A stretch of DNA of 32,291 nucleotides, from NCBI RefSeq assembly GCF_000403135.1, contig NZ_AQPN01000120.1:1-32291 (forward strand), read 5' to 3'. Positions 228 through 11,394 of the stretch are shown here, in pieces (position 1 is the stretch's first letter; every line of letters begins with the position of its first letter). The position numbers and the translations under genes were made by a program. This DNA is from Arcticibacter svalbardensis MN12-7 (GTDB lineage Bacteria; Bacteroidota; Bacteroidia; Sphingobacteriales; Sphingobacteriaceae). Below the pieces are notes generated by a model that was not told the origin of the DNA, did not search any database, and saw nothing but the letters and a program-made list of their open reading frames with translations.

Positions 228-944
228 ATGACTGATGTAGCTATTGTACTGGCAGGAGGATTAGGAACCAGACTTCAATCCGTGGTTAAAGACGTGCCTA
301 AACCCATGGCAGAAGTTGCCGGACGTCCCTTTTTGAGCTATCTCATGTATTTTTTGTCAACCAACAAGATTAAAAAAGTCATTTTAGCAGTAGGTTATAA
401 ATACGAGATCATTAAGGAATACCTGAAAATTCCGGAGAACCGCTATGGATTAGAAATAACTTATAGCATTGAAACAGAATTGCTTGGTACAGGAGGTGCT
501 ATCTTTAAAGCATATGAACAGGTGGAAGGAGATAGTGCATTTATTCTAAACGGAGATACATTTTTTGATATATCATTATCAGATCTGGAAGCATTTGCTC
601 GCTCCAATTCAGCAGATTTAGCATTTGCACTTTTGGAAACCGAACATTCGAGCAGATACGGAAGTGTGAACTGTGCTTCAAATGGACAAATCTTAGCATT
701 TAAAGAGAAAAATGCAAACCTTAATATAAAGACGATTATTAATGGAGGAATTTACTACATGAATAAATCGCTTGTTTCAGGTACACCAATGCCCGCTAAG
801 TTCTCGATGGAGCAGGATTTCTTTGAAAGGAACTTACACAGATTGCAGGCATACGGAAAAGTATACCAAGCCCTTTTTATTGATATTGGAATTCCTTCAG
901 ATTATACATTATCGCAGGAGTTACTTAAAAATATTATAGCTTAA
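228..944 (+). CDS. hddC: Sugar-1-phosphate nucleotidyltransferase, HddC-like (D-glycero-alpha-D-manno-heptose-1-phosphate guanylyltransferase)
   Basis: A 238-residue cytoplasmic NTP-transferase. The N-terminal signature LAGGLGTRL (residues 8-16) followed by PKPM (24-27) is the nucleotide-binding loop and lysine of the family; LGTGGA (86-91) and the metal-site N-G-D (108-110) follow. The length suits the short guanylyl/uridylyl-transferases without a C-terminal beta-helix. It would join heptose-1-phosphate to GTP to give the activated sugar for surface polysaccharide, S-layer glycan or O-antigen. It lies 13 bases after the kinase end and one base before the GmhB-like phosphatase, so the three are surely co-transcribed. 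The ATG at 228 is the first start after the kinase stop. The transferase fold is certain; heptose as substrate rests on the operon. Confidence 0.82.
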   Translation: MTDVAIVLAGGLGTRLQSVVKDVPKPMAEVAGRPFLSYLMYFLSTNKIKKVILAVGYKYEIIKEYLKIPENRYGLEITYSIETELLGTGGAIFKAYEQVEGDSAFILNGDTFFDISLSDLEAFARSNSADLAFALLETEHSSRYGSVNCASNGQILAFKEKNANLNIKTIINGGIYYMNKSLVSGTPMPAKFSMEQDFFERNLHRLQAYGKVYQALFIDIGIPSDYTLSQELLKNIIA

Positions 945-945
945 G

Positions 946-1455
946 ATGTTAGATACGCTGTTTCTGGACCGTGATGGTGTCCTGAATAAGAAATTAGATG
1001 ACACCTATGTGCTCCTGCCATCTGACATAGAAATCCTTCCAGGTATAAAGGATTTCCTATTGTGGGCCAATCAGGCGTTTAAGCAAATTCTTGTGGTCAC
1101 CAACCAACGTTGTATTGGAAGGAAGATGCTAAGCCTGATTGAATTAAAGGCCATAAATGAACAGATTAACAAACAAGTAGGCTCTGTTATTCAGTACTTC
1201 TTTGTTTGTCCACATCTTGATGAAGACAATTGTAACTGCAGAAAGCCTAAAACGGGACTTTTCCTTCAAGCTAAAGAAATGTATTCCATTGATTTTGACA
1301 ATTCCTGGATGATAGGAGATTCTGTCAGCGATTTAATACCAGCCAGAAGCCTGGGAATAAAAACAATTTACGTCGGCCATCATGATAGCCAGATGGCTGA
1401 TTTTCGGGTTGAATCTACTGTCCAACTTCTACCTTCCCTCATAAATCAGGGTTAA
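946..1455 (+). CDS. gmhB: D-glycero-D-manno-heptose 1,7-bisphosphate phosphatase (GmhB-like HAD-IIIA hydrolase)
   Basis: A 169-residue HAD phosphatase. Motif I is L-D-R-D-G-V-L-N with nucleophile D8 and acid/base D10; motif II is T52 in VTNQ; motif III is K102; motif IV is G-D-S-V-S-D with D125 and D129. A zinc loop typical of GmhB and histidinol phosphatases is present (C88, H90, C96, C98). It removes the C7 phosphate from heptose 1,7-bisphosphate before nucleotidyl transfer. It starts one base after the guanylyltransferase stop, so translational coupling is likely. Its stop is 11 bases from the stop of a convergent gene, so it is the last gene of the operon. The isomerase GmhA would be expected upstream, outside the window. 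Confidence 0.87.
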   Translation: MLDTLFLDRDGVLNKKLDDTYVLLPSDIEILPGIKDFLLWANQAFKQILVVTNQRCIGRKMLSLIELKAINEQINKQVGSVIQYFFVCPHLDEDNCNCRKPKTGLFLQAKEMYSIDFDNSWMIGDSVSDLIPARSLGIKTIYVGHHDSQMADFRVESTVQLLPSLINQG

Positions 1456-1466
1456 CCTCTGCTCTG

Positions 1467-2759
1467 CTATTTATTATTATTGGCCCCGTTAACATTCACA
1501 TAGGAGCCAGGCCGTCTGCCTGTTTTTAGTAATTTATTAAGAGAAACCACATTGTGCGAGGTTTCAGAGCCATCAAAAAGCACCACTCCATTGTCTGTTC
1601 CAAGACTAGCATCTATATCATTGCGGGTTATTACGTTTTTAGTACATCCAGCTCTTAAGTATATAGCATTCCCCGATTTCACTTTTATTTTGTTATTAGT
1701 AATTTTTCCCGATGTGCAATTTACCAGCATAATGGCCATGCCATCCGTTGATATTGTATTTCCGGTTACACTAAAATTATCGAGATTACATAATTCCATC
1801 CCCCTGATCTTATTTTTATCAGCTGTTTTACCACCGGAAAGTTCAAATACATTATCCTTAATTAACCAACTCTTTTTTAAAGGTCCCGAAGCTAATAAGC
1901 CAGTAAATCCATACGTACTGGATTGCATATAGTTACCAATCGTTTCTAAACCTATAGTTCCTGCATTTTCAATCCCATAATAGATGTATTTTGAGCTCTC
2001 CATATGCATATCATAAAACTTATTATAATTAATCTTGCCATTTAAGGAATGTCCGCTAACAGACACACAGGCAGGTGCCGGTCCCAATTGTATGGTACCC
2101 ACGTTATAAAAGTAATTATAGGAGATCTCAAAGTCACTGAACCGTGGAGCAATCAGTGTGTTATGATTTTGAAACTCAACAGCCATACGGCCTATATTTT
2201 CAAACTTATTATACGTTATTGATATATTTTTAGCACTTGAATTGGTCCCCTCACTGACGAGTTTAATACCATTTGCCTGAGAGTTTGGAATACTAAACCT
2301 GCAATTCTGAATCTTCAAGCCATCCATCCTATCATTATCGCCATAATTAGCAATGAATATAAGTCCCTCCGCATCATCAACTGCACTCACCTTGGTCGAT
2401 TTAAAAGCAATGCCTTCAATTTGCAGATTATTGATCTCACCAGATATGGTAATTATTTTATTTTGATTACTGGTAAAAACAGTACCAGGCTCACCTGAAA
2501 TCTTTAAATTAGTCACGTTACTGATAGTAATAAAATTGTTTATTACATAGATCCCTTTTGGAAAGAACAAATGTGTATCACTAGAGATGTAGCTTTGAAT
2601 CTCCTGATCCTGATCAATAATCCCCCTTAGCCTTACTTCAATTCTATTAGGAGTAATTAAGGAGTCCGTTTCAGTTCTATTTAAAATGGGACTACCCATA
2701 CTTTCAAAGCTAACGAGGACAAGAACAAGGAATAAACCAGTAAAAATTCTTTCAATCAT
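1467..2759 (-). CDS. Secreted right-handed parallel beta-helix protein (pectate-lyase-like fold)
   Basis: 430 residues with an N-terminal hydrophobic signal peptide (about residues 5-22, M-I-E-R-I then FTGLFLVLVLVSF) and a likely cleavage before the mature region near SMGSPIL. From about residue 90 to the end the chain is a series of short N-rich rungs such as ITGNTIS, ITNNKIK and ITRNDID, alternating with small hydrophobics: the pattern of parallel beta-helix repeats (PbH1, NosD/pectate-lyase superfamily). Such proteins cleave or bind polysaccharide in the periplasm or outside the cell. It is convergent with the GDP-heptose operon, which fits a surface-glycan locus, but no catalytic residues can be named. 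A possible promoter at 2969-2997 would give it an unusually long leader. Confidence 0.78.
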   Translation of the reverse strand: MIERIFTGLFLVLVLVSFESMGSPILNRTETDSLITPNRIEVRLRGIIDQDQEIQSYISSDTHLFFPKGIYVINNFITISNVTNLKISGEPGTVFTSNQNKIITISGEINNLQIEGIAFKSTKVSAVDDAEGLIFIANYGDNDRMDGLKIQNCRFSIPNSQANGIKLVSEGTNSSAKNISITYNKFENIGRMAVEFQNHNTLIAPRFSDFEISYNYFYNVGTIQLGPAPACVSVSGHSLNGKINYNKFYDMHMESSKYIYYGIENAGTIGLETIGNYMQSSTYGFTGLLASGPLKKSWLIKDNVFELSGGKTADKNKIRGMELCNLDNFSVTGNTISTDGMAIMLVNCTSGKITNNKIKVKSGNAIYLRAGCTKNVITRNDIDASLGTDNGVVLFDGSETSHNVVSLNKLLKTGRRPGSYVNVNGANNNK

Positions 2760-2857
2760 AATTCAGCAATACCTAAAATAAAAATAATCAATTTTATAAG
2801 TCAATTTGAAATCTTAATTTGTTTAACACGTAAAATTAACACTGGTTGTTGTTCTAA

Positions 2858-2884
2858 AATCACAGATAATCACAGATAATCACA
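2858..2884. repeat. Tandem repeat, unit AATCACAGAT x 2.7
   Basis: Three head-to-tail copies (2858-2867, 2868-2877, partial 2878-2884). They lie in what would be the 5' leader of the beta-helix gene if the promoter at 2969-2997 is used. They may be a simple slippage product or a binding-site array. Confidence 0.75.
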
Positions 2885-2968
2885 ACCGGTAGAAAAGGCC
2901 AATTCTCACGCTATTTTTGCAGCTAATATTGATCTTCTGTTTAAATATTATCTTAACGCTATAAATTG

Positions 2969-2997
2969 CAAATATATTTATACTGATTTTCTACAAT
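2969..2997 (-). promoter_or_regulatory. Candidate Bacteroidota promoter for the beta-helix gene
   Basis: On the minus strand TATATTTG (2969-2976) matches the Bacteroidota -7 consensus TAnnTTTG. ATTG (2994-2997) lies 17 bases upstream of it, near the expected -33 TTTG position. The predicted transcript start is about 200 bases before the ATG at 2759. AT-rich sequence makes chance matches common. Confidence 0.4.
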
Positions 2998-3124
2998 TCT
3001 ATTTGACCATTTTATTGCCATTCAGTCTACAAAAAAAGTATCACCACTTTACTTTCCCAAGAATAAATCCTTGATTTTCGGCTACCTTTTAAAGCAAATA
3101 CATTGCATCCCTGTATCTACTGAT

Positions 3125-6064
3125 TTATTTCACCTCTCCTTTATCAAGTAAAGCATCATAAAGAATTTCTACAGTATGAAAGGCATCACGCCCGGATCCA
3201 TCTTTAATCTGATGCCTGCAACTGGTTCCCGTAGCTACGACTAAAGTATCAGCAGCAGTCTGCCTTACTGCTGGCAAAAGAACGAGTTCTCCAATCTGCA
3301 TGGAGATTTTATAATGTTCCTTTTCCAAACCGAATGATCCCGCCATTCCACAACAACCTGATGGTATCGTTTCTACACTATAATTTTCTGGTAAGGAAAG
3401 ACATCTTACCGAAGCGGCCAGTGAGGATATAGCTTTCTGCTGACAATGCCCATGCAGCAATACTTTTCTTGCATCTTTAATAAAAAGATCTTTACCAATA
3501 GTTCCATTTTCTGCCTCCTGCGCAATAAATTCATCAATCAAGAACGTATTTTTAGCTAAATTTCGGGCAGCATCCAATAAGTCAGCATCCACAAGATCAG
3601 GATATTCGTCCCTAAAAGTAAGTATTGCGGAAGGCTCAAGACCAATCAGGGGAGTGTCTGCCGTAATTAATTCAGCCAACTGACGTACATTTTTGTTTGC
3701 TATATTTTTTGCTTTACGAACAAAACCTTTCGAGAGCCAGGTACGCCCACTTTCAATATGTTCGGGCATCAATACATCAAAACCCAATTGCTCAAGTAAA
3801 AGGATGGCCTTAATTCCAATAGAGGTATCAATGTAATTGCTAAACTCATCAAAGAAAAAATACACTTGCCTTTTATTTACGTTCTTAAGCTTTCCTCGTT
3901 TTTTAAACCAGCTTTTAAGCGTAAAGGAATGAAGTTTTGGAAGTGTCCTTTCTTTAGCAAATCCAGCCACACGAGGCAAACTTGAAGCAGCTAAATAATT
4001 ATACAGACCGGGAAAGAGCATTCCAATACTTGAAATTACACTGAATCCTGCTATAACTCTTGAACGGAAGGGCGCCCCATTCGCATCATAATAGTGCTGT
4101 AAAAATTCAGCCTTCAATTTAGCAAGATCTACATTGGAAGGGCACTCTGATTTACAGCCTTTACAGCTCAGACATAGATCCATTACTTCCAAAATTTCTT
4201 TATGATCAAAGCGGTTAATTTTTTCAGAATGAGTAAGAAATTCCCTCAATGTATTTGCCCTGCCTCTTGTTGTGTCTTTTTCATTTCTTGTTGCCATGTA
4301 GGAGGGGCACATCGTTCCTCCCGAAAATTGCAGTTTACGACAATCTCCAGACCCATTGCACTGTTCTGCATGTTGAAGAATATGCTGACCATTAAAGCGG
4401 AAAATCGTCTTTATCTCGGGTTGTTGCTGTCCGGGTTCATACCTGAGCATGGTGTTCATTGGAGGAGTTTCCACAATCTTACCCGGATTAAAAATATGTT
4501 GCGGGTCCCAGGTATCCTTGATGGTCTTAAAAAGTTGGTAATTCTTTTCTCCAAACAGGTACGGCAGAAACTCGCCCCTTAATCTTCCATCCCCATGCTC
4601 CCCGGACAATGAGCCACGATACCTTTTCACCAGTTCAGCTATTTCAGCAGCGATCATCTTATACTGCGCATTTCCATTATGAGTCTTCAGATTTATGATC
4701 GGTCGTAGATGCAGTTCTCCCGCTCCGGCATGTGCATAATGCACAGAATAAAGTTCATGCTTCTTTAAGATCTCATTAAACTCATTGATATAGGAGGTCA
4801 GATCTTGCAAATCGACCGCTGTATCCTCAATTACAGGAACTGCTTTATCATCACCTGGAAGATTACTTAATAAACCTAATCCTGCTTTTCTTAAATCCCA
4901 GATCCTGCTGCATTCTTCGTCCAAAATAAGAGGATAATGATAACCTAGTCCAGCCCCTTGCAGCTCATCTTTCAGCAATCCAGCTAGTTCAACAACAGTT
5001 TCCGTTTTTTCCTTTATGAACTCAACCATCAGTATAGCTCCCGGGTCACCAAGTATAAAAAAACGATTCTTTCTTTGTTCAATGTTGTCCCTGGTACAAT
5101 CAAGTATATAATGATCCATGAGTTCGCAAGCAGATGGCTGGTAACTCATAGCGATGACATTGGCTCGCAGTGCCTCTTCAACGGTGTTAAAGTGAATACA
5201 TAACAACCCCTTAAATTTATCAGGCAAAGGAACAAGATTCAGCTTTATTTCTGTAACAAAGGCAAGTGTCCCTTCAGATCCTGCAATCAGCTTACAAAAA
5301 TTGAATGATTCAGCTCTCTCAGAAAAAGGAGTAGCATCCATCAGAAGATCTAATGCATAACCACTATTCCTTCTTTGGATACTTTTCTTTGGAAATTCTT
5401 TTTCTATTTCCGAACGGTTAGCCGGATCACCGAGCAGTGATAAAGTAGTATGATAAAGGGTCGATTCCAGACTAGTTCCTATGCATTTTTTATAGAAGGC
5501 CTCCAGGTTCAGCTCCTTAAACACAACCTCTGAGCCATCACTAAGTACAGCGTTAACCTCAAGTAAATGTTCCCTGGTACTTCCATAAACGATTGAATTT
5601 GCCCCACAACTATTATTGCCTACCATTCCACCGATCATTGCCCTGTTTGCTGTTGATGTTTCAGGGGCAAAGAAAAGCCCGAATGGCTTAAGGAAAATAT
5701 TTAATACGTCTCTGATCACACCTGGTTGTACGCGTACCCACTTTTCCTCTTGATTGAACGCTATGATTTCAGTAAAATATTTCGAAAGATCAACGACTAT
5801 GCCTTCGCCTACTACCTGTCCGGCAAGGGATGTTCCTGCACAACGCGGAATAAGGCTTGTCTTTTCACTTTTAGCAAAACGGACGAGCGCTTTTATATCA
5901 TGTACTGTTTTGGGAACTGCCACAGCGAGGGGAATTTCCCGGTAAGATGAAGCATCAGTAGCATATAAAATGCGTTGCAAAGGATCCAGATACAGCTCAC
6001 CATCTAATTCCGCACGTAATTGGTCTAGCTTATCTAATGTAGTTTTATCTGTCTTTGAAACCAT
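3125..6064 (-). CDS. Three-module FAD / Fe-S dehydrogenase, YdiJ-type, probable D-2-hydroxyglutarate dehydrogenase
   Basis: The frame is open to 6136, but the Met at 6064 (M-V-S-K-T-D) gives a 979-residue protein close to E. coli YdiJ (1018). The extra 24 residues upstream are untypical and AT-rich, so I prefer 6064. Order: FAD-binding domain (P-R-C-A-G-T-S near 74-80; G-N-N-S-C-G-A-N near 149-156), FAD-oxidase C-terminal domain (E-H-G-D-G near 489-493), a ferredoxin-like module with first cluster cysteines in CNGSGDC and a CxxCxxCxxxCP second cluster (C631, C634, C637, C641), then a cysteine-rich CCG module (C-C-G-M-A-G-S near the end). The family oxidises D-2-hydroxy acids such as D-2-hydroxyglutarate or D-lactate and passes electrons to the respiratory chain. 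It is divergent from a DUF1338 gene whose product is D-2-hydroxyglutarate, so that substrate is strongly suggested; D-lactate remains possible. Confidence 0.85.
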   Translation of the reverse strand: MVSKTDKTTLDKLDQLRAELDGELYLDPLQRILYATDASSYREIPLAVAVPKTVHDIKALVRFAKSEKTSLIPRCAGTSLAGQVVGEGIVVDLSKYFTEIIAFNQEEKWVRVQPGVIRDVLNIFLKPFGLFFAPETSTANRAMIGGMVGNNSCGANSIVYGSTREHLLEVNAVLSDGSEVVFKELNLEAFYKKCIGTSLESTLYHTTLSLLGDPANRSEIEKEFPKKSIQRRNSGYALDLLMDATPFSERAESFNFCKLIAGSEGTLAFVTEIKLNLVPLPDKFKGLLCIHFNTVEEALRANVIAMSYQPSACELMDHYILDCTRDNIEQRKNRFFILGDPGAILMVEFIKEKTETVVELAGLLKDELQGAGLGYHYPLILDEECSRIWDLRKAGLGLLSNLPGDDKAVPVIEDTAVDLQDLTSYINEFNEILKKHELYSVHYAHAGAGELHLRPIINLKTHNGNAQYKMIAAEIAELVKRYRGSLSGEHGDGRLRGEFLPYLFGEKNYQLFKTIKDTWDPQHIFNPGKIVETPPMNTMLRYEPGQQQPEIKTIFRFNGQHILQHAEQCNGSGDCRKLQFSGGTMCPSYMATRNEKDTTRGRANTLREFLTHSEKINRFDHKEILEVMDLCLSCKGCKSECPSNVDLAKLKAEFLQHYYDANGAPFRSRVIAGFSVISSIGMLFPGLYNYLAASSLPRVAGFAKERTLPKLHSFTLKSWFKKRGKLKNVNKRQVYFFFDEFSNYIDTSIGIKAILLLEQLGFDVLMPEHIESGRTWLSKGFVRKAKNIANKNVRQLAELITADTPLIGLEPSAILTFRDEYPDLVDADLLDAARNLAKNTFLIDEFIAQEAENGTIGKDLFIKDARKVLLHGHCQQKAISSLAASVRCLSLPENYSVETIPSGCCGMAGSFGLEKEHYKISMQIGELVLLPAVRQTAADTLVVATGTSCRHQIKDGSGRDAFHTVEILYDALLDKGEVK

Positions 6065-6227
6065 AATGAGTCGAACCGATAAAGTAAATGTATATAAATT
6101 AATATATCTATTTATAATAATGTTAAAATGACTCAATAAAAGACAAATAATAATAATTATAACTTTTTATTGTTTATATTTAAATAAAAATAACTACGAT
6201 AATCTTTATTTATAAAAAATATGACAT

Positions 6228-7055
6228 ATGGAAAAAGATAATTTGTTAAAACTATTATGGGATAACTATACGCAGATGACCCCATCTGCAAAGCACATAC
6301 ATCAGATATTTGAAGAGCAAGGCGAACAAGTATTAAATGATCATATTGCTTTAAGAACCTTTAATGATCCCAGGGTTAATATAGAAGTAATAGCCAAGCC
6401 ATTTATTGAGCTCGGCTATGTTGAAAAAGGGGAGTATGAATTCAAAGAGAAAAAACTATTGGCACATCATTATGAATTCCCTGATGATGAAAACGCTCCG
6501 AAAATATTTATTAGTGAACTTCTTCTCGAAAAATGCTCTGAAGAACTTCAAGAAATCATTTCAGGTGTGATTGATCAAATTCCGGATCATGCTTCTACTA
6601 AGGATAACCTGTTGCTGCAGGGAAGGCTCTGGGATATTTCCTTTCATGATTATGAAATATTAAGGAAAGAGTCTGAATACGCTTCCTGGATGTATGTATT
6701 TGGTTTTTGTGCCAACCATTTCACTGTATTGGTAAATGGACTAAAAACGTTGAAAAGTTTGGAAGAAGTAAATGACTTTTTAAAAGCTAAAAACTTCAAA
6801 CTCAATGACGCTGGAGGGGAAATTAAAGGTACTCCATCCCAATTTTTAGAACAATCAAGTACAATTGCTGATCAGGTTCCTGTTCATTTTGGACAGGATA
6901 TCAAAAACATACCAAGCTGTTACTATGAGTTTGCACGACGCTATCCTTTAGCTGATGGAAACTTGTACCAGGGCTTTATTGCTGCTTCAGCTGATAAAAT
7001 ATTCGAGAGCACAAATGTCTCACTAGTGGAAAAAATTCTTTCAAAAAATCAATAG
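6228..7055 (+). CDS. hglS: DUF1338 / HglS-type 2-oxoadipate dioxygenase/decarboxylase (forms D-2-hydroxyglutarate)
   Basis: 275 residues covering the DUF1338 fold. The metal site of this family is visible: H39 within D-H-I-A-L-R with partner R43 (the HxxxR signature), a second His at H164 (C-A-N-H-F-T) and E234 in Y-Y-E-F-A-R-R. HglS uses Fe(II) and O2 to convert 2-oxoadipate to D-2-hydroxyglutarate and CO2, the key step that joins lysine/aminoadipate breakdown to 2-oxoglutarate. The protein is shorter than the ~450-residue pseudomonad HglS, resembling the compact form. Its stop is one base before the saccharopine-dehydrogenase-family start, and it is divergent from the D-2-hydroxyglutarate dehydrogenase; both neighbours support the call. 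No Shine-Dalgarno precedes the ATG. The metal residues are identified by pattern, not structure. Confidence 0.87.
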   Translation: MEKDNLLKLLWDNYTQMTPSAKHIHQIFEEQGEQVLNDHIALRTFNDPRVNIEVIAKPFIELGYVEKGEYEFKEKKLLAHHYEFPDDENAPKIFISELLLEKCSEELQEIISGVIDQIPDHASTKDNLLLQGRLWDISFHDYEILRKESEYASWMYVFGFCANHFTVLVNGLKTLKSLEEVNDFLKAKNFKLNDAGGEIKGTPSQFLEQSSTIADQVPVHFGQDIKNIPSCYYEFARRYPLADGNLYQGFIAASADKIFESTNVSLVEKILSKNQ

Positions 7056-7056
7056 T

Positions 7057-8256
7057 ATGTCAGAACATAAAATAAACAAGGTTATTATTGTCGGAGCAGG
7101 AGGAATAGGAAGGGCTGTTGGGCTTTTACTGGCTGAGTATGCAGATTTTAAGATTAGTCTTTTTGTAGGGGACAGAGACCTTTTAACAGCAGGAGAGGCG
7201 GCTGGTTGGATTAATGAAGGCAATACGAAAGAGATTCATGCTACTGCTTTTCAGTTCCTGCCTGGCTATGAAAATCAGGATAGTAACTGTTTTACAAATG
7301 CTGACATCATCCTGGATTGTCTCCCTGGCACAGAAGCTCCACGTATGGGTGCTATTGCTAAAAGGTATGGTACGCATTATGTAAACCTGACCGAATATGT
7401 AAACGAAACGGAACAACTTCAAAGATTGTCTAAAGATGCTGAAACCGGTTTCATACTTCAAAGCGGTCTTGCTCCTGGTTTCGTAAATATCCTGGCACAA
7501 TCACTTTACAAAAAATTTGTAGTCAAATACAAAAACGAACAGGTTGAATATATAGGCATGAAGGTGGGAGCGCTAACAGAACATGCTGAATCCCCTCATT
7601 TTTATGGGTTTACCTGGAGCCCTGTGGGAGTAGCAACCGAGTATCTCAAGAACGCCTGGATTGTGGATGACTTTAAAAAGAAAACAGTTCCATCTTTATC
7701 TGGTCGCGAAACCCTGATCATAAATGGCATTTCTTATGAAGAAGATTACACGTCTGGTGGAGCTGCAGACCTTCCTGATGTGTTCTCAGGAATAGCGAAA
7801 AAGCTGGATTACAAGACACTTAGGTATCCTGGACATTATAAGTGGATTCAGAGCATTCTGGATCAGGTACCCGAAAATGAAGAACCTGTACAGTTTTTAG
7901 AAAGACATATGCTATCAGTAATACCATCCATCGAAGAGGATATCGTAGTGATCTACTGTGTAGTAAAGGGCTTTGACCGCAGTTCTTGTTTACGTTCTCT
8001 TGAAAAGGCTTTTAAGATAGGTCCAATAAAAGTTGGAAAAGCTACACTTAGAGCAATACAATCAACCACAGCAGCACCAATGGCAGAGTGTGCACGCATG
8101 CTCTTATCCGGAAAATACAAAGGTACCATATTACAGAGCTATATTGATCCCCTGGAGTTTCTAAACGGGCCTTTTGTGAAGGCGGTGTATTTCCCCGATC
8201 ATGCTGTGTATTTGCCAAAAGAAATGCGGAATGCTGTAGTACGAGTCGCCGTTTAA
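7057..8256 (+). CDS. Saccharopine dehydrogenase family oxidoreductase (lysine catabolism)
   Basis: 399 residues, Rossmann N-terminus with V-G-A-G-G-I-G (12-18) and an acidic-basic stretch D39-R40-D41 near the end of the second strand. This is followed by the saccharopine-dehydrogenase-like C-terminal domain (about 130-375). The family includes saccharopine dehydrogenase (glutamate-forming, LYS9 type) and lysine 6-dehydrogenase. Both yield aminoadipate semialdehyde, the substrate of the aldehyde dehydrogenase gene at 8782. It begins one base after the DUF1338 stop, so they are one transcript. Its last four bases overlap the end of the convergent Lrp gene. I cannot tell from sequence whether it acts on saccharopine or directly on lysine. 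If on saccharopine, a lysine-ketoglutarate reductase must be encoded elsewhere. Confidence 0.82.
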   Translation: MSEHKINKVIIVGAGGIGRAVGLLLAEYADFKISLFVGDRDLLTAGEAAGWINEGNTKEIHATAFQFLPGYENQDSNCFTNADIILDCLPGTEAPRMGAIAKRYGTHYVNLTEYVNETEQLQRLSKDAETGFILQSGLAPGFVNILAQSLYKKFVVKYKNEQVEYIGMKVGALTEHAESPHFYGFTWSPVGVATEYLKNAWIVDDFKKKTVPSLSGRETLIINGISYEEDYTSGGAADLPDVFSGIAKKLDYKTLRYPGHYKWIQSILDQVPENEEPVQFLERHMLSVIPSIEEDIVVIYCVVKGFDRSSCLRSLEKAFKIGPIKVGKATLRAIQSTTAAPMAECARMLLSGKYKGTILQSYIDPLEFLNGPFVKAVYFPDHAVYLPKEMRNAVVRVAV

Positions 8257-8735
8257 TGTTTCAGATCAGGTACAGGGCAGTTCCTTTTGAAAACAGTTCC
8301 AAAATTTATGGTAGTTTCCGTTCTGAGGATCCCTGGAATGGCATCTATTTTTTCATAAAGAATTTCACGCAGATGTTCATTATTCCGGGCGACAATCTTT
8401 AAAAACAGTGTATATTGGCCCGATATATAATAACATTCTACAATTTCAGGAATCTTTTTGAGTGCCTCAATTATGTGTTTTGATGTAGGATCTTCTTTTA
8501 AAATTATGCCTGTAAATGCACTACTTTCGTACCCTAGTCCTTTTTCGCTAAGATTAACCTGCGTGGTTTCAATGATCTGGAATTGTTTAAGTCTGGATAC
8601 ACGCTGGTGAACCAGGGAATTAGAAATATTTAAAGATTTAGCAATTTGAACATATGGCTTTTCAGCATCCATTTGCAACTGTTCAAGAATATTCCTATCT
8701 ATTTCATCCAAAATATAGGTATCACTCATAAGCAT
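8253..8735 (-). CDS. Lrp/AsnC family transcriptional regulator
   Basis: 160 residues: a winged HTH (about 8-57, recognition helix around I37-K50, S-N-S-L-V-H-Q-R-V) and a C-terminal RAM/AsnC ligand-binding domain (about 70-150). These regulators bind an amino acid and repress or activate the neighbouring catabolic gene, as BkdR and lysine-responsive members do. It is divergent from the ALDH gene with 46 bases between starts (a second Met at codon 3 is equally possible), and overlaps the saccharopine-family gene at its 3' end by 4 bases. It is the obvious local controller of this lysine cluster, with lysine or aminoadipate as likely ligand; this is inference from position. The shared gap carries an AT-rich dyad (8754-8777). 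Confidence 0.9.
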   Translation of the reverse strand: MLMSDTYILDEIDRNILEQLQMDAEKPYVQIAKSLNISNSLVHQRVSRLKQFQIIETTQVNLSEKGLGYESSAFTGIILKEDPTSKHIIEALKKIPEIVECYYISGQYTLFLKIVARNNEHLREILYEKIDAIPGILRTETTINFGTVFKRNCPVPDLKH

Positions 8736-8753
8736 TATATTGAAGCTGTAATT

Positions 8754-8777
8754 ATAAATATTTTAAAATAGATTTAT
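8754..8777. promoter_or_regulatory. AT-rich dyad in the divergent lrp-aldh gap, candidate Lrp operator
   Basis: Arms ATAAAT-A-TTTT and AAAATA-g-ATTTAT form an imperfect palindrome centred about 8764, between the starts of the Lrp-family gene and the ALDH gene. Lrp-type operators are AT-rich palindromes of this size, but this whole gap is AT-rich, so chance is a real alternative. Confidence 0.3.
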
Positions 8778-8781
8778 AGCA

Positions 8782-10311
8782 ATGAACAACATAGATTTTT
8801 TAAAAGTTCTGGGACTTGAAGATTTAAATCCGGGTGTATCTACAGGTAATGATTGGATCCTAACTGCTAACGAGATAGAATCAATCTCACCAGTTGATGG
8901 TAAACGAATAGGTACAGTTCGTATTGCCAGTCCGGAGGATTATGAAAGCGTTATAAAGACAGCTGAGGAAGCATTTCCAGAATGGCGTAAGTTACCAGCA
9001 CCCAAGCGGGGAGATATTATCAGACAGATGGCTGATGCTTTCAGAAAGTACAAGCAGGAATTGGGTACTCTTATTTCATATGAAATGGGTAAAAGTCTTC
9101 AGGAAGGCTTAGGAGAAGTGCAGGAAGTGATAGATGTCTGTGATTTTGCAAGTGGCCTATCCAGACAAATTTATGGTCTAACGATGCATTCAGAGCGCCC
9201 GGATCATCGCATGTATGAGCAATATCATCCACTTGGAATCGTAGGAGTAATTACTGCTTTTAATTTCCCTGCAGCTGTATGGGCATGGAATACGATGCTT
9301 GCACTGGTTTGCGGAGACGTTGCCGTTTGGAAACCCTCACATAAAGTTTTATTAACAGCTGTAGCCTGTCAGAAAATTGCAGGTCGTGTTCTTAAAGAAA
9401 ACAATGTACCTGAAGGAGTTTGCTCCCTGATATGCGGAGCAAATGAACTTGGTGAAACCATGGCGAAAGATAAGCGGATTCCTTTAATTTCAGCCACCGG
9501 ATCAACTGCTATGGGAAGAAAAGTAGCAGTGGCAGTAGGAGAAAGGCTTGGAAAAACCTTACTTGAACTTGGCGGTAATAATGCCATCATTATTACCGAA
9601 AATGCAGATCTTACTATTGCCCTCCATGCCTCAGTTTTTGGAGCCATTGGAACGGCAGGGCAGCGTTGCACCACTACTCGTCGTCTTATTATTCACTCAT
9701 CCATATTTGAAGAGTTTAAAATCAAACTACTAAACGCTTATAAACAGGTTAAGATAGGAAATCCATTGTTAGAGGGAATACATATGGGTCCACTGATTGA
9801 TCAGTCTGCAGTCCAGCATTATTTAAATGCTTTGGATGATTGTAAAGAGCAGGGAGCGCAATTTACTGTTGAAGGAGGAGTATTGGAAGGCACAGGATAT
9901 GAAAGTGGCTGTTATGTGAAACCGTGTATTGTAGAAGTAAAACCTGATTTCCCAATTGTTCAAAAAGAAACATTCGCACCATTACTTTATATTATGGAAT
10001 ACGATACCCTTGCTGAGGCAATTGGCATTCAAAACGGAGTATCCCAGGGACTTTCATCCGGAATAATCTCCCTGAATCTTAGAGAAACAGAGCTTTTTCT
10101 TTCCTCTGCAGGTTCCGATTGTGGTATTGCTAATGTGAATATCGGAACTTCAGGAGCCGAAATAGGAGGAGCTTTCGGAGGAGAAAAAGACTCCGGAGGA
10201 GGTAGAGAATCAGGATCTGATTCATGGAAAGCTTATATGCGCAGACAAACCAATACGATTAATTATGGAACCGGACTTCCTCTGGCACAAGGAATTAAAT
10301 TTGATTTTTAA
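8782..10311 (+). CDS. Aldehyde dehydrogenase, ALDH7-type: L-2-aminoadipate-6-semialdehyde dehydrogenase
   Basis: 509 residues, the full ALDH length. The catalytic residues are all present: N161 in F-N-F-P, K184 in W-K-P-S, E262 in L-E-L-G-G-N-N and nucleophile C296 in G-Q-R-C-T-T-T. The N-N in E-L-G-G-N-N-A and the opening P-V-D-G-K-R-I-G-T-V are the look of the ALDH7/antiquitin branch (AmaB/Pcd). It would oxidise alpha-aminoadipate semialdehyde, in equilibrium with piperideine-6-carboxylate, to aminoadipate with NAD(P)+. It is next to the saccharopine-family gene and divergent from the Lrp-family gene, which supports the lysine assignment. A hairpin terminator candidate at 10385-10415 ends its transcript. 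A broad-specificity aldehyde dehydrogenase is the alternative. Confidence 0.85.
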   Translation: MNNIDFLKVLGLEDLNPGVSTGNDWILTANEIESISPVDGKRIGTVRIASPEDYESVIKTAEEAFPEWRKLPAPKRGDIIRQMADAFRKYKQELGTLISYEMGKSLQEGLGEVQEVIDVCDFASGLSRQIYGLTMHSERPDHRMYEQYHPLGIVGVITAFNFPAAVWAWNTMLALVCGDVAVWKPSHKVLLTAVACQKIAGRVLKENNVPEGVCSLICGANELGETMAKDKRIPLISATGSTAMGRKVAVAVGERLGKTLLELGGNNAIIITENADLTIALHASVFGAIGTAGQRCTTTRRLIIHSSIFEEFKIKLLNAYKQVKIGNPLLEGIHMGPLIDQSAVQHYLNALDDCKEQGAQFTVEGGVLEGTGYESGCYVKPCIVEVKPDFPIVQKETFAPLLYIMEYDTLAEAIGIQNGVSQGLSSGIISLNLRETELFLSSAGSDCGIANVNIGTSGAEIGGAFGGEKDSGGGRESGSDSWKAYMRRQTNTINYGTGLPLAQGIKFDF

Positions 10312-10384
10312 TATTTCATCAGCATTAGGAAGTACGAACTCTGATTAAATATTAAAAGACTTACTAAAACCGTATCACAATTTC

Positions 10385-10415
10385 AAAGAGCCTTAATCAT
10401 GATTATGGGCTCTTT
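10385..10415 (+). terminator. Hairpin downstream of the ALDH gene, probable terminator
   Basis: AAAGAGCC (10385-10392) pairs perfectly with GGCTCTTT (10408-10415), and the loop itself contains the palindrome AATCATGATT. A T-rich run (tgttttta) follows only after about 12 bases, so it is a stem with a poor U-tract. It sits 74 bases past the ALDH stop, before an unrelated gene. Confidence 0.6.
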
Positions 10416-10506
10416 GTGTATAAGACTGTTTTTATTACAAAGACTTTTACAATTTGTGTAGTAAGCTGTTGCGTTGAATATTTATATTTGTTTAAAGCCT
10501 ATAAAG

Positions 10507-11394
10507 ATGAGCCAAATTAACAAAGAAGACATCAAACAGGAAGTGTTTGATCTATATGATGACTACGCACATAACCGCCTTAGCCGACGCGCATTTGTAC
10601 AAAACCTTTCACTTTATGCAGTTGGCGGATTAACAGTACCCGCATTAATGAGTTTTCTGATGCCTGATTACATTGGAAAGGTGCAAATCAAACCAGACGA
10701 TCCCAGGTTAAAATCAGAATACATCAATTATTCCTCTCCCAAAGGTGGGGGAACCATTAAAGGATTATTATCAAAACCAATTAAGGAAAATAAAAAGCTT
10801 GGTGGCATCATCGTGGTACATGAAAATCGGGGACTCAACCCTTATATTGAAGATGTTGCCAGAAGAGCTGCCTTGGCTGGATTTATTTCCCTTGCTCCAG
10901 ATGCATTGACTCCCTTGGGAGGTTATCCTGGTAATGATGACGAGGGTCGCAATTTGCAAAGTAAAAGGGATAAAGGCGAAATGGAAGAAGATTTTATTGC
11001 GGCATATGATTACCTAAAAAATCACAAAGACTGTAACGGCAAGGTAGGTGTTGTGGGCTTTTGTTTTGGTGGCGGAATAGCTAACATGATGGCTGTACGG
11101 ATTCCAGAACTAGCAGCAGCAGTACCTTTTTACGGCAGTCAGCCCGAAATTTCCGATGTACCCAAAATCAATTCACCCCTGATGTTACACTATGCATCTC
11201 TTGACACCAGAATTACGGCAGGATGGCCACCTTACGAAGCTGCATTAAAAGATAGTGACAAAAATTATCAGGCTTTTATTTATGAAAACGTAAACCATGG
11301 GTTTCATAACGATACAACACCCCGCTATGATAAGGCAGCCGCAGAACTTGCCTGGAAACGTACTATTGATTTTTTTACGGAGCATTTAAAATAA
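10507..11394 (+). CDS. Dienelactone hydrolase family protein with a Tat-like N-terminus
   Basis: 295 residues from the ATG at 10507 (M-S-Q-I-N-K); an earlier in-frame ATG at 10474 adds 11 residues with no family resemblance. Numbered from M-S-Q: a twin-arginine motif S-R-R-A-F-V (27-32) precedes a hydrophobic stretch with V-G-G-L-T-V-P-A-L, so the protein is probably exported folded or membrane-tethered. The alpha/beta hydrolase core follows: H-E-N-R-G (105-109), nucleophile C186 in G-F-C-F-G-G-G, D233 in S-L-D-T-R and H264 in V-N-H-G-F-H. That is the Cys-Asp-His triad of dienelactone hydrolases. The true substrate is unknown; many such proteins act on carboxylic ester lactones. It stands alone, with a terminator before it and a long gap after it. 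Confidence 0.82.

What the first reader, a model, noticed from the sequence alone, without database searches (positions are those of the whole stretch)
3125..10311. Compact lysine/aminoadipate-to-2-oxoglutarate cluster built around a short HglS (DUF1338)
The sequence shows, in one 7-kb block, a saccharopine-dehydrogenase-family gene, an ALDH7-type aldehyde dehydrogenase, a DUF1338 gene with its HxxxR, His and Glu site, a YdiJ-type D-2-hydroxy-acid dehydrogenase and an Lrp regulator. HglS is known to turn 2-oxoadipate into D-2-hydroxyglutarate in pseudomonads. Here it would be combined with a saccharopine-type front end rather than the D-lysine route. The complete combination in a Bacteroidota-like genome is a clear functional hypothesis. 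Missing: an aminoadipate transaminase and possibly a lysine-ketoglutarate reductase.
Basis: partly seen in the sequence, partly recalled or inferred. Interest (0 to 1): 0.72.

Follow-up and report, generated by a model that had tools for sequence, protein, structure and literature searches.

The report
Bacterial lysine-breakdown gene cluster
These five neighbouring genes most likely let a bacterium break down the amino acid lysine to a central metabolite through a one-step entry enzyme rather than the animal-and-plant saccharopine route; the parts are known, and only their combination and an unusual version of the entry enzyme look new.

Summary
Families: HglS/DUF1338, saccharopine-dehydrogenase family, Lrp/AsnC, piperideine-6-carboxylate dehydrogenase (ALDH7), and a YdiJ-like FAD/Fe-S oxidase. 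The lysine-to-2-oxoglutarate reading is supported. The 'saccharopine-type front end' is not: the 7057-8256 protein is better read as L-lysine 6-dehydrogenase. Its first solved-structure match is 3ABI, it shares TSGG with all 30 bacterial rows aligned where human saccharopine dehydrogenase reads PNRDS, a tree separates it from human and fungal saccharopine dehydrogenases, and no lysine-ketoglutarate reductase was found in the genome. An aminoadipate transaminase is missing from the locus; one genomic lead is 44% identical to the aminotransferase of an Agrobacterium plasmid cluster that holds the whole set. Relatives carry LysDH-HglS-ALDH7 runs (12 of 72 loci), and a YdiJ homologue lies near HglS in 62 of 72. 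Every enzyme is of a known kind; novelty is the combination, a divergent LysDH branch and the short HglS. In passing: four relatives join HglS to a kinase-phospholyase fusion and glycosidases, a candidate collagen-hydroxylysine locus.

The parts
3125..6064 (-). YdiJ-like FAD-linked oxidase + Fe-S protein, 979 aa; likely D-2-hydroxyglutarate dehydrogenase
   Evidence: Pfam FAD_binding_4, FAD-oxidase_C, Fer4_17, Fer4_8; NF049975 612.4 bits, below cut-off 1350; homologues (56-67% identity) lie on the strand of HglS within 4.5 kb in 61 of 72 further loci, and on the other strand in the congener
6065..6227 (.). 163-bp divergent intergenic region between the starts of ydiJ-like and hglS
   Evidence: promoter scan of the region 2700-10600 not above shuffles
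6228..7055 (+). HglS (DUF1338), short type, 275 aa; predicted 2-oxoadipate dioxygenase/decarboxylase
   Evidence: PF07063 96.1 bits; 3LHO E 6.9e-91, 6W1K E 2.5e-34; H39, R43, H164, E234 invariant in 14 sequences; only match in the genome at E 0.001
7057..8256 (+). saccharopine-dehydrogenase-family protein, 399 aa; likely L-lysine 6-dehydrogenase of a divergent branch
   Evidence: PF16653/PF03435; 3ABI first; TSGG at 232-235; starts 1 bp after the hglS stop; only match in the genome
8253..8735 (-). Lrp/AsnC-family regulator, 160 aa
   Evidence: Lrp genes also lie beside the dehydrogenase in L002-L004 and in L119, L120, L126
8736..8781 (.). 46-bp divergent intergenic region, lrp / aldh7
8782..10311 (+). 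ALDH7-type L-piperideine-6-carboxylate (aminoadipate semialdehyde) dehydrogenase, 509 aa
   Evidence: NF050084 791.7 bits over cut-off 730; chains named alpha-aminoadipic semialdehyde dehydrogenase E about 1e-158; the only over-cut-off member in the genome, next 238.5 bits

Best explanation
A catabolic module that turns L-lysine into 2-oxoglutarate. (1) The 7057-8256 protein oxidises the epsilon-amino group of lysine with NAD(P)+ and releases ammonia, giving aminoadipate semialdehyde, which cyclises to piperideine-6-carboxylate. (2) ALDH7 oxidises that to L-2-aminoadipate. (3) A transaminase coded elsewhere gives 2-oxoadipate. (4) HglS, an Fe(II)/O2 enzyme, decarboxylates and hydroxylates it to D-2-hydroxyglutarate. 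(5) The YdiJ-like flavin/Fe-S protein oxidises this to 2-oxoglutarate. The Lrp protein probably senses lysine. Shown here: gene content, family membership, site residues, conserved neighbourhoods. Inferred: every reaction in this organism, step 1 in particular, which transaminase serves, and the ligand of Lrp.
For: Step 1: first match 3ABI, titled in the PDB as L-lysine dehydrogenase (phmmer E 1.3e-11 against 8e-8 for human SDH; 19-sequence profile 2.2e-37 against 3.2e-14 for the next full-length SDH; Foldseek rank 1, E 2.9e-21 against 8.5e-20; VIA Z 35.0, rmsd 2.6, 337 aligned against Z 29.8 for the best SDH). TSGG and R-[YFH]-PGH in 30 of 30 bacterial rows and NRDS in none; human SDH reads PNRDS and RYKGY there. 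Tree: human and fungal SDH on one side (100/100), 3ABI and all 30 bacterial rows on the other. No LKR among the 3 PF05222 proteins of the genome. Steps 2, 4. Step 5: YdiJ homologue within 4.5 kb of HglS in 62 of 72 loci, 61 of them on its strand. Whole set: 12 of 72 loci carry a 350-370-aa LysDH-family gene just upstream of HglS, all 12 with ALDH7 and 11 with YdiJ too, on one strand; pRiA4b holds HglS, ALDH7, aminotransferase and YdiJ in one run beside LysDH and Lrp, three of them over NCBIfam equivalog cut-offs.
Against: No activity was tested. The window-type dehydrogenase is only 29-34% identical to the LysDH-type rows outside its branch, and I know of no characterised member of its branch. 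In the phylum sample 8 of 9 genomes with a close relative of it (E < 1e-90) have no HglS hit, and it is not beside the other genes there. Carboxyspermidine dehydrogenase is tied with 3ABI in the VIA comparison (Z 34.2 against 35.0), though its HEE triad is absent; in Foldseek the margin over SDHs is small and one SDH (1FF9) has the higher TM-score by query (0.73 against 0.70-0.71). YdiJ model below cut-off; HglS matches no NCBIfam model. No transaminase at the locus and none over the 2-aminoadipate transaminase cut-off in the genome.
Confidence: 0.75

Rival explanations
1. Saccharopine route: 7057-8256 is a glutamate-forming saccharopine dehydrogenase working with a lysine-ketoglutarate reductase coded elsewhere.
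For: Family names PF16653/PF03435; the GFTWSPVGV stretch resembles human SDH KFSWSPVGV; SDHs are the next full-length sequence relatives, the Foldseek margin is small.
Against: 3ABI ranks first in four comparisons; NRDS absent, TSGG present; tree; no LKR candidate among the PF05222 proteins of a 99.99% complete genome. A profile of those three proteins does reach chains of human aminoadipic semialdehyde synthase of 434-476 aa, read here as its LKR part (E 5e-6 to 2e-5). No true bacterial LKR was run as a positive control.
Confidence: 0.12
2. The dehydrogenase acts on another amine or aldehyde pair (for example a carboxyspermidine-type condensation), and only ALDH7, HglS and YdiJ-like serve lysine or aminoadipate, which enters as aminoadipate or pipecolate from outside.
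For: Carboxyspermidine dehydrogenase is a tied structural match; close relatives stand without HglS in 8 of 9 phylum-sample genomes.
Against: HEE triad absent in all 30 rows; the gene starts 1 bp behind hglS, and a homologous LysDH-family gene adjoins HglS in 12 other order loci.
Confidence: 0.1
3. Chance neighbourhood of unrelated metabolic genes.
For: Mixed strands; ALDH7 is widespread (over cut-off in 153 of 296 phylum genomes).
Against: Same order in L002, most of it in L003, part in L004; LysDH-HglS-ALDH7 in another order in 12 of 72 loci; pRiA4b.
Confidence: 0.02

Closest known systems
Pseudomonas putida D-lysine route with AmaB, HglS and a YdiJ-type dehydrogenase (PMC7286885: abstract, sections 8 and 9, and passages read; the 2019 mBio paper is not held, its details are recalled)
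   Same: Lower half: ALDH7, 2-oxoadipate, HglS, D-2-hydroxyglutarate dehydrogenase
   Different: Entry by a lysine 6-dehydrogenase instead of D-lysine/pipecolate; short HglS; regulator and gene order
Lysine 6-dehydrogenase followed by piperideine-6-carboxylate dehydrogenase (biochemistry recalled; passages of PMC6697735, PMC9437556, PMC9854754; gene pairs in Ruegeria L118 and Legionella adelaidensis L123)
   Same: Upper half: LysDH-family gene beside an aldehyde dehydrogenase
   Different: No HglS annotated in those two stretches; window dehydrogenase is on a separate branch
Agrobacterium fabrum plasmid pRiA4b cluster (L124)
   Same: LysDH-family, ALDH7, HglS, YdiJ and Lrp together
   Different: Long HglS (463 aa), LysR gene, and the aminotransferase in the run
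Plant FLO7-type HglS (6W1K)
   Same: Short DUF1338 with HxxxR, His, Glu; sequence match E 2.5e-34
   Different: Plants use a bifunctional LKR/SDH entry (PMC7253579, search listing only)
LysDH-HglS-ALDH7-YdiJ runs of other Sphingobacteriaceae
   Same: Same enzyme families
   Different: One strand, no Lrp seen, HglS of another type (34-44% identity to the window's) and 350-370-aa LysDH

Membership tests
HglS / DUF1338 (PF07063) | Profile match over the curated cut-off | tested here: met
   96.1 bits against 25
HglS / DUF1338 (PF07063) | His-His-Glu metal triad and substrate Arg | tested here: met
   H39, H164, E234, R43; aligned with 6W1K and 3LHO
HglS / DUF1338 (PF07063) | 2-oxoadipate to D-2-hydroxyglutarate activity | not testable with these tools
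   needs an assay
Long bacterial HglS (NCBIfam NF049974) | Equivalog match | tested here: not met
   no NCBIfam match; the pRiA4b protein scores 750.8 against 550. Filed in PF07063 only
L-lysine 6-dehydrogenase (3ABI-like) | Closest to the solved LysDH by sequence and fold | tested here: met
   first; by fold the lead is small (tie within 1 Z with 8DEB; 1FF9 higher TM by query)
L-lysine 6-dehydrogenase (3ABI-like) | On the 3ABI side of a tree with SDHs | tested here: met
   midpoint root, 3ABI and 1E5L branches long, PDB rows partial
L-lysine 6-dehydrogenase (3ABI-like) | Lysine-binding residues as modelled for Geobacillus LysEDH (H181, Y238, T240, R242) | not tested
   residues read in passages of PMC6697735; that sequence was not at hand to map them
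L-lysine 6-dehydrogenase (3ABI-like) | Lysine-dependent NAD(P)+ reduction | not testable with these tools
   needs an assay
Saccharopine dehydrogenase (Glu-forming) | PNRDS stretch of human SDH | tested here: not met
   TSGG aligned there instead; that this stretch binds saccharopine is recalled
Saccharopine dehydrogenase (Glu-forming) | LKR partner in the genome | tested here: not met
   3 PF05222 proteins: two alanine-dehydrogenase-like, one PntA-like; no true LKR run as a control
Carboxyspermidine dehydrogenase | His-Glu-Glu triad | tested here: not met
   string HEE in none of 30 rows; triad from passages of PMC10413350
Piperideine-6-carboxylate dehydrogenase (ALDH7) | NF050084 over cut-off | tested here: met
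   791.7 against 730
YdiJ equivalog (NF049975) | Score over cut-off | tested here: not met
   612.4 against 1350; named 'YdiJ-like' only
2-aminoadipate transaminase (NF049976) | A genome protein over cut-off | tested here: not met
   5 matches, best 229.9 against 650

The most novel reading that the evidence does not exclude
In Bacteroidota the 2-oxoadipate/HglS step is an exchangeable sink for aminoadipate semialdehyde with different front ends. In the window the front end is a so far uncharacterised branch of lysine 6-dehydrogenase with a short HglS; in four relatives of one genus it is a hydroxylysine kinase/phospholyase fusion in a locus with an alpha-glucosidase-like and a beta-galactosidase-like enzyme and SusC/D-like genes, that is, a locus for using the glucosyl-galactosyl-hydroxylysine of collagen.
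Probability: 0.4. Interest if true: 0.65.

Novelty: new variant of a known kind. Interest (0 to 1): 0.4.

Why it matters
Proteins of this branch fall under the family name 'saccharopine dehydrogenase' although the evidence points to a lysine 6-dehydrogenase, so lysine catabolism in Bacteroidota genomes may be misread. The cluster offers a compact, testable route from lysine to 2-oxoglutarate that does not need glutaryl-CoA, and the neighbourhoods suggest that HglS is paired with more than one way of making aminoadipate semialdehyde.

Tried and rejected
Saccharopine front end: considered first, dropped on sequence rank, motif, tree and genome content (see Membership tests). Carboxyspermidine dehydrogenase: tied fold match, triad absent. 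Near-DNA search of plasmids found no match. Transaminase: class I/II (14 matches) and class III (5) proteins exist; one search named 7 of the 14 class I/II ones, and none of the names listed is a 2-aminoadipate transaminase; all 5 class III ones fall below that model's cut-off. The best lead is C44:25584-26756, 44% identical to the pRiA4b aminotransferase, but both resemble aspartate transaminases, so it is a lead only. Promoter and terminator scans were not above shuffles. Paper searches: by titles and abstract starts no listed paper describes LysDH plus HglS in Bacteroidota; 'lysine dehydrogenase' with 'hydroxyglutarate' gave 0 papers. These searches cover only the open library, and listings were capped. 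That GapMind's web tool lists such a route is recalled; the main text of its paper holds 'lysine' twice, neither about this route.

Results against the reading, in one place: 8 of 9 phylum-sample genomes with a close relative of the dehydrogenase lack HglS; 3 of the 5 same-genus genomes drawn, the window's included, lack HglS; 8 of 72 HglS loci show none of the partner genes; the fold ranking is close.

Full report
Observation. The five genes are present. HglS and the dehydrogenase are 1 bp apart; the dehydrogenase and Lrp genes converge with a 4-bp overlap; Lrp and ALDH7 diverge over 46 bp; YdiJ-like and HglS diverge over 163 bp. The YdiJ-like frame is best started at the ATG at 6064 (979 aa); my family scans used 3125-6061, one codon shorter. 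The genome (G000, 4.69 Mb, 149 contigs, 99.99% complete) is not named to me; the nearest named locus is Arcticibacter eurypsychrophilus L002 (89-98% protein identity for the five genes).

HglS. 275 aa, PF07063, one match in the genome. The closest solved chains are 3LHO (E 6.9e-91) and 6W1K (E 2.5e-34). H39, R43, H164 and E234 are invariant in all 14 sequences aligned, 6W1K and 3LHO included. Thompson et al. (PMC7286885; abstract, sections 8 and 9, and passages) report that the Arg dictates 2-oxoadipate specificity, that R74A abolishes activity, and that 99.7% of bacterial members with the triad keep the Arg; they used 3LHO as search model for FLO7. So the activity is a well-founded prediction, not shown here. 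The protein fits no NCBIfam model, unlike the long HglS of pRiA4b.

The dehydrogenase. Family names say saccharopine dehydrogenase, but the comparisons point to lysine 6-dehydrogenase. 3ABI, the Pyrococcus L-lysine dehydrogenase, is first by phmmer (1.3e-11; human SDH 8e-8), by a 19-sequence profile (2.2e-37; second a 118-aa fragment 3IC5 named putative saccharopine dehydrogenase, 1.1e-28; next full-length SDH 3.2e-14), by Foldseek (2.9e-21 against 8.5e-20 for human SDH; TM by query 0.70-0.71, with 1FF9 at 0.73) and by VIA-align (Z 35.0, rmsd 2.6, 337 aligned; carboxyspermidine dehydrogenase Z 34.2, a tie; SDHs Z 29.8 and below). The model has mean pLDDT 78.8 and pTM 0.83, with residues 233-236 of the TSGG stretch below 50, so no pocket claim is made from it. 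In 30 of 30 bacterial rows TSGG is present and R-[YFH]-PGH follows; NRDS is in none. Human SDH reads PNRDS and RYKGY in the printed alignment. In the tree the human and fungal SDH rows stand apart from 3ABI and the 30 bacterial rows (100/100); window-type rows form one group of 14 (98/95), and the other 16 bacterial rows the other (89/95, not starred) (midpoint root; long branches for 3ABI and 1E5L; PDB rows partial). The string HEE of the carboxyspermidine dehydrogenase triad is in no row (triad from passages of PMC10413350).

Is a lysine-ketoglutarate reductase present? LKR belongs to the AlaDh/PNT superfamily (recalled). A profile of the genome's own three members reaches chains of human aminoadipic semialdehyde synthase of 434-476 aa, read here as its LKR part, at E 5e-6 to 2e-5. 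PF05222 finds three proteins in the genome: alanine dehydrogenase (578.6 bits, over cut-off), a PntA-like one (412.5 on NF006942, over cut-off) and a second alanine-dehydrogenase-like one (325.8, below cut-off; its closest solved chains are alanine dehydrogenases). No LKR is seen; no true LKR was run as a positive control.

ALDH7 and the YdiJ-like protein. ALDH7 is over the equivalog cut-off and is the only such protein in the genome. The family is common in the phylum (153 of 296 genomes over cut-off). The YdiJ-like protein is below the YdiJ cut-off, and its C-terminal part resembles GlpC, so its assignment rests on neighbourhood.

Neighbourhood. HglS occurs in 17 of 296 phylum genomes and 73 of 300 order genomes. 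I fetched the surroundings of the 72 of those 73 other than the window (seven stretches are under 12 kb). Within 4.5 kb of HglS: YdiJ homologue 62 of 72 (61 on its strand, the congener L134 on the other), ALDH7 19 of 72, LysDH-family 13 of 72 and all 13 with ALDH7, no partner 8 of 72. Twelve of the 13 are LysDH-HglS-ALDH7 on one strand, 11 of them with YdiJ next; the thirteenth, L134, is the A. eurypsychrophilus locus again. In that sample the window-type HglS is only in the window and L134; the others match at 36-44%. Beside these, L003-L005 have HglS directly before the window-type dehydrogenase, and L006 does not.

From the plasmid collection, 82 records carry a relative of the dehydrogenase; I opened six. 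pRiA4b (L120/L124) holds LysR, HglS, ALDH7, aminotransferase and YdiJ, then the convergent LysDH-family gene with Lrp behind it; HglS 750.8 (550), ALDH7 810.6 (730) and YdiJ 1465.5 (1350) are over cut-off. Ruegeria L118 and Legionella adelaidensis L123 have the dehydrogenase beside an aldehyde dehydrogenase (that of L118 is over the ALDH7 cut-off; that of L123 was not scanned). L119 and L126 have Lrp beside it; L125 shows neither (that gene table is incomplete). So the gene set is a recurring one.

Transaminase. None at the locus. The 2-aminoadipate transaminase model finds no protein over cut-off. The pRiA4b aminotransferase finds C44:25584-26756 at 44% identity, E 6.6e-102. Both look like aspartate transaminases. 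Enzymes of this class are often broad (recalled), so a housekeeping enzyme could serve.

Against. Eight of nine phylum genomes with a close window-type dehydrogenase have no HglS; there it is not beside ALDH7, HglS, YdiJ or Lrp, and the only neighbours that recur are two frames shared by L006, L070 and L072. The window dehydrogenase is 29-34% identical to LysDH-type rows outside its branch. No reaction has been measured.

Verdict. New variant of a known kind, moderate interest.

Side finding. Four of the eight partner-less HglS loci (L135, L136, L137, L139; all of genus g3) have HglS at the end of a one-strand run with a 761-766-aa protein, a 653-666-aa protein and a further large one, alike across the four (clusters c17-c19). 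Domains were scanned in L135/L206 only: the first is an APH kinase plus class-III aminotransferase fusion whose lyase half is closest to ethanolamine-phosphate phospho-lyase 6TOR (E 9.2e-141); the second is YgjK/GH63/MGH1-like (alpha-glucosidase model 406 bits, below its cut-off of 625); the third is a GH2 beta-galactosidase-type protein, preceded by SusD and SusC-like proteins. The PHYKPL lyase, a relative of that phospho-lyase, makes aminoadipate semialdehyde from phosphohydroxylysine, and collagen carries Glc-Gal on hydroxylysine (both recalled). All four genomes hold a 66-67% relative of the window's ALDH7 elsewhere. A hydroxylysine (collagen) utilisation locus is the reading I find most likely; ethanolamine as substrate is not excluded.

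Noticed in passing
L135/L206 (G541), L136/L207 (G524), L137 (G451), L139 (G518): HglS ends a one-strand run with a GH2 beta-galactosidase-type, a YgjK/GH63-like and an APH-kinase + phospho-lyase fusion protein, SusC/SusD before them in L206 (domains scanned in L135/L206 only): candidate collagen glucosyl-galactosyl-hydroxylysine utilisation locus feeding aminoadipate semialdehyde towards HglS.
   Followed up: partly
L122 and L127 (Pseudoalteromonas plasmids): Short 3LHO-like HglS sits in the arginine succinyltransferase operon: Lrp, astC-like transaminase, astA, (astD in L127), HglS. Why a 2-oxoadipate enzyme lies there is not explained.
   Followed up: partly
L121 4822-8547 (Deinococcus proteolyticus plasmid): A DAO-family FAD oxidoreductase, HglS and an aldehyde dehydrogenase lie in line; may be a pipecolate or D-amino-acid entry to the same lower half.
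   Followed up: no
L066-L073: Close relatives of the window dehydrogenase stand apart from the other genes in eight genomes without an HglS match.
   Followed up: partly
window 228-1455: Sugar-nucleotidyltransferase (HddC-like, below cut-off) and HAD heptose-bisphosphatase-like genes in tandem; unrelated to the cluster.
   Followed up: no
window 10504-11394: YghX-family dienelactone-hydrolase-type protein (424.6 bits, cut-off 460) follows the cluster here and in L002.
   Followed up: no
G450 (L205): HglS match split over two open stretches (238 and 89 aa, a stop inside the second), possibly decayed.
   Followed up: no
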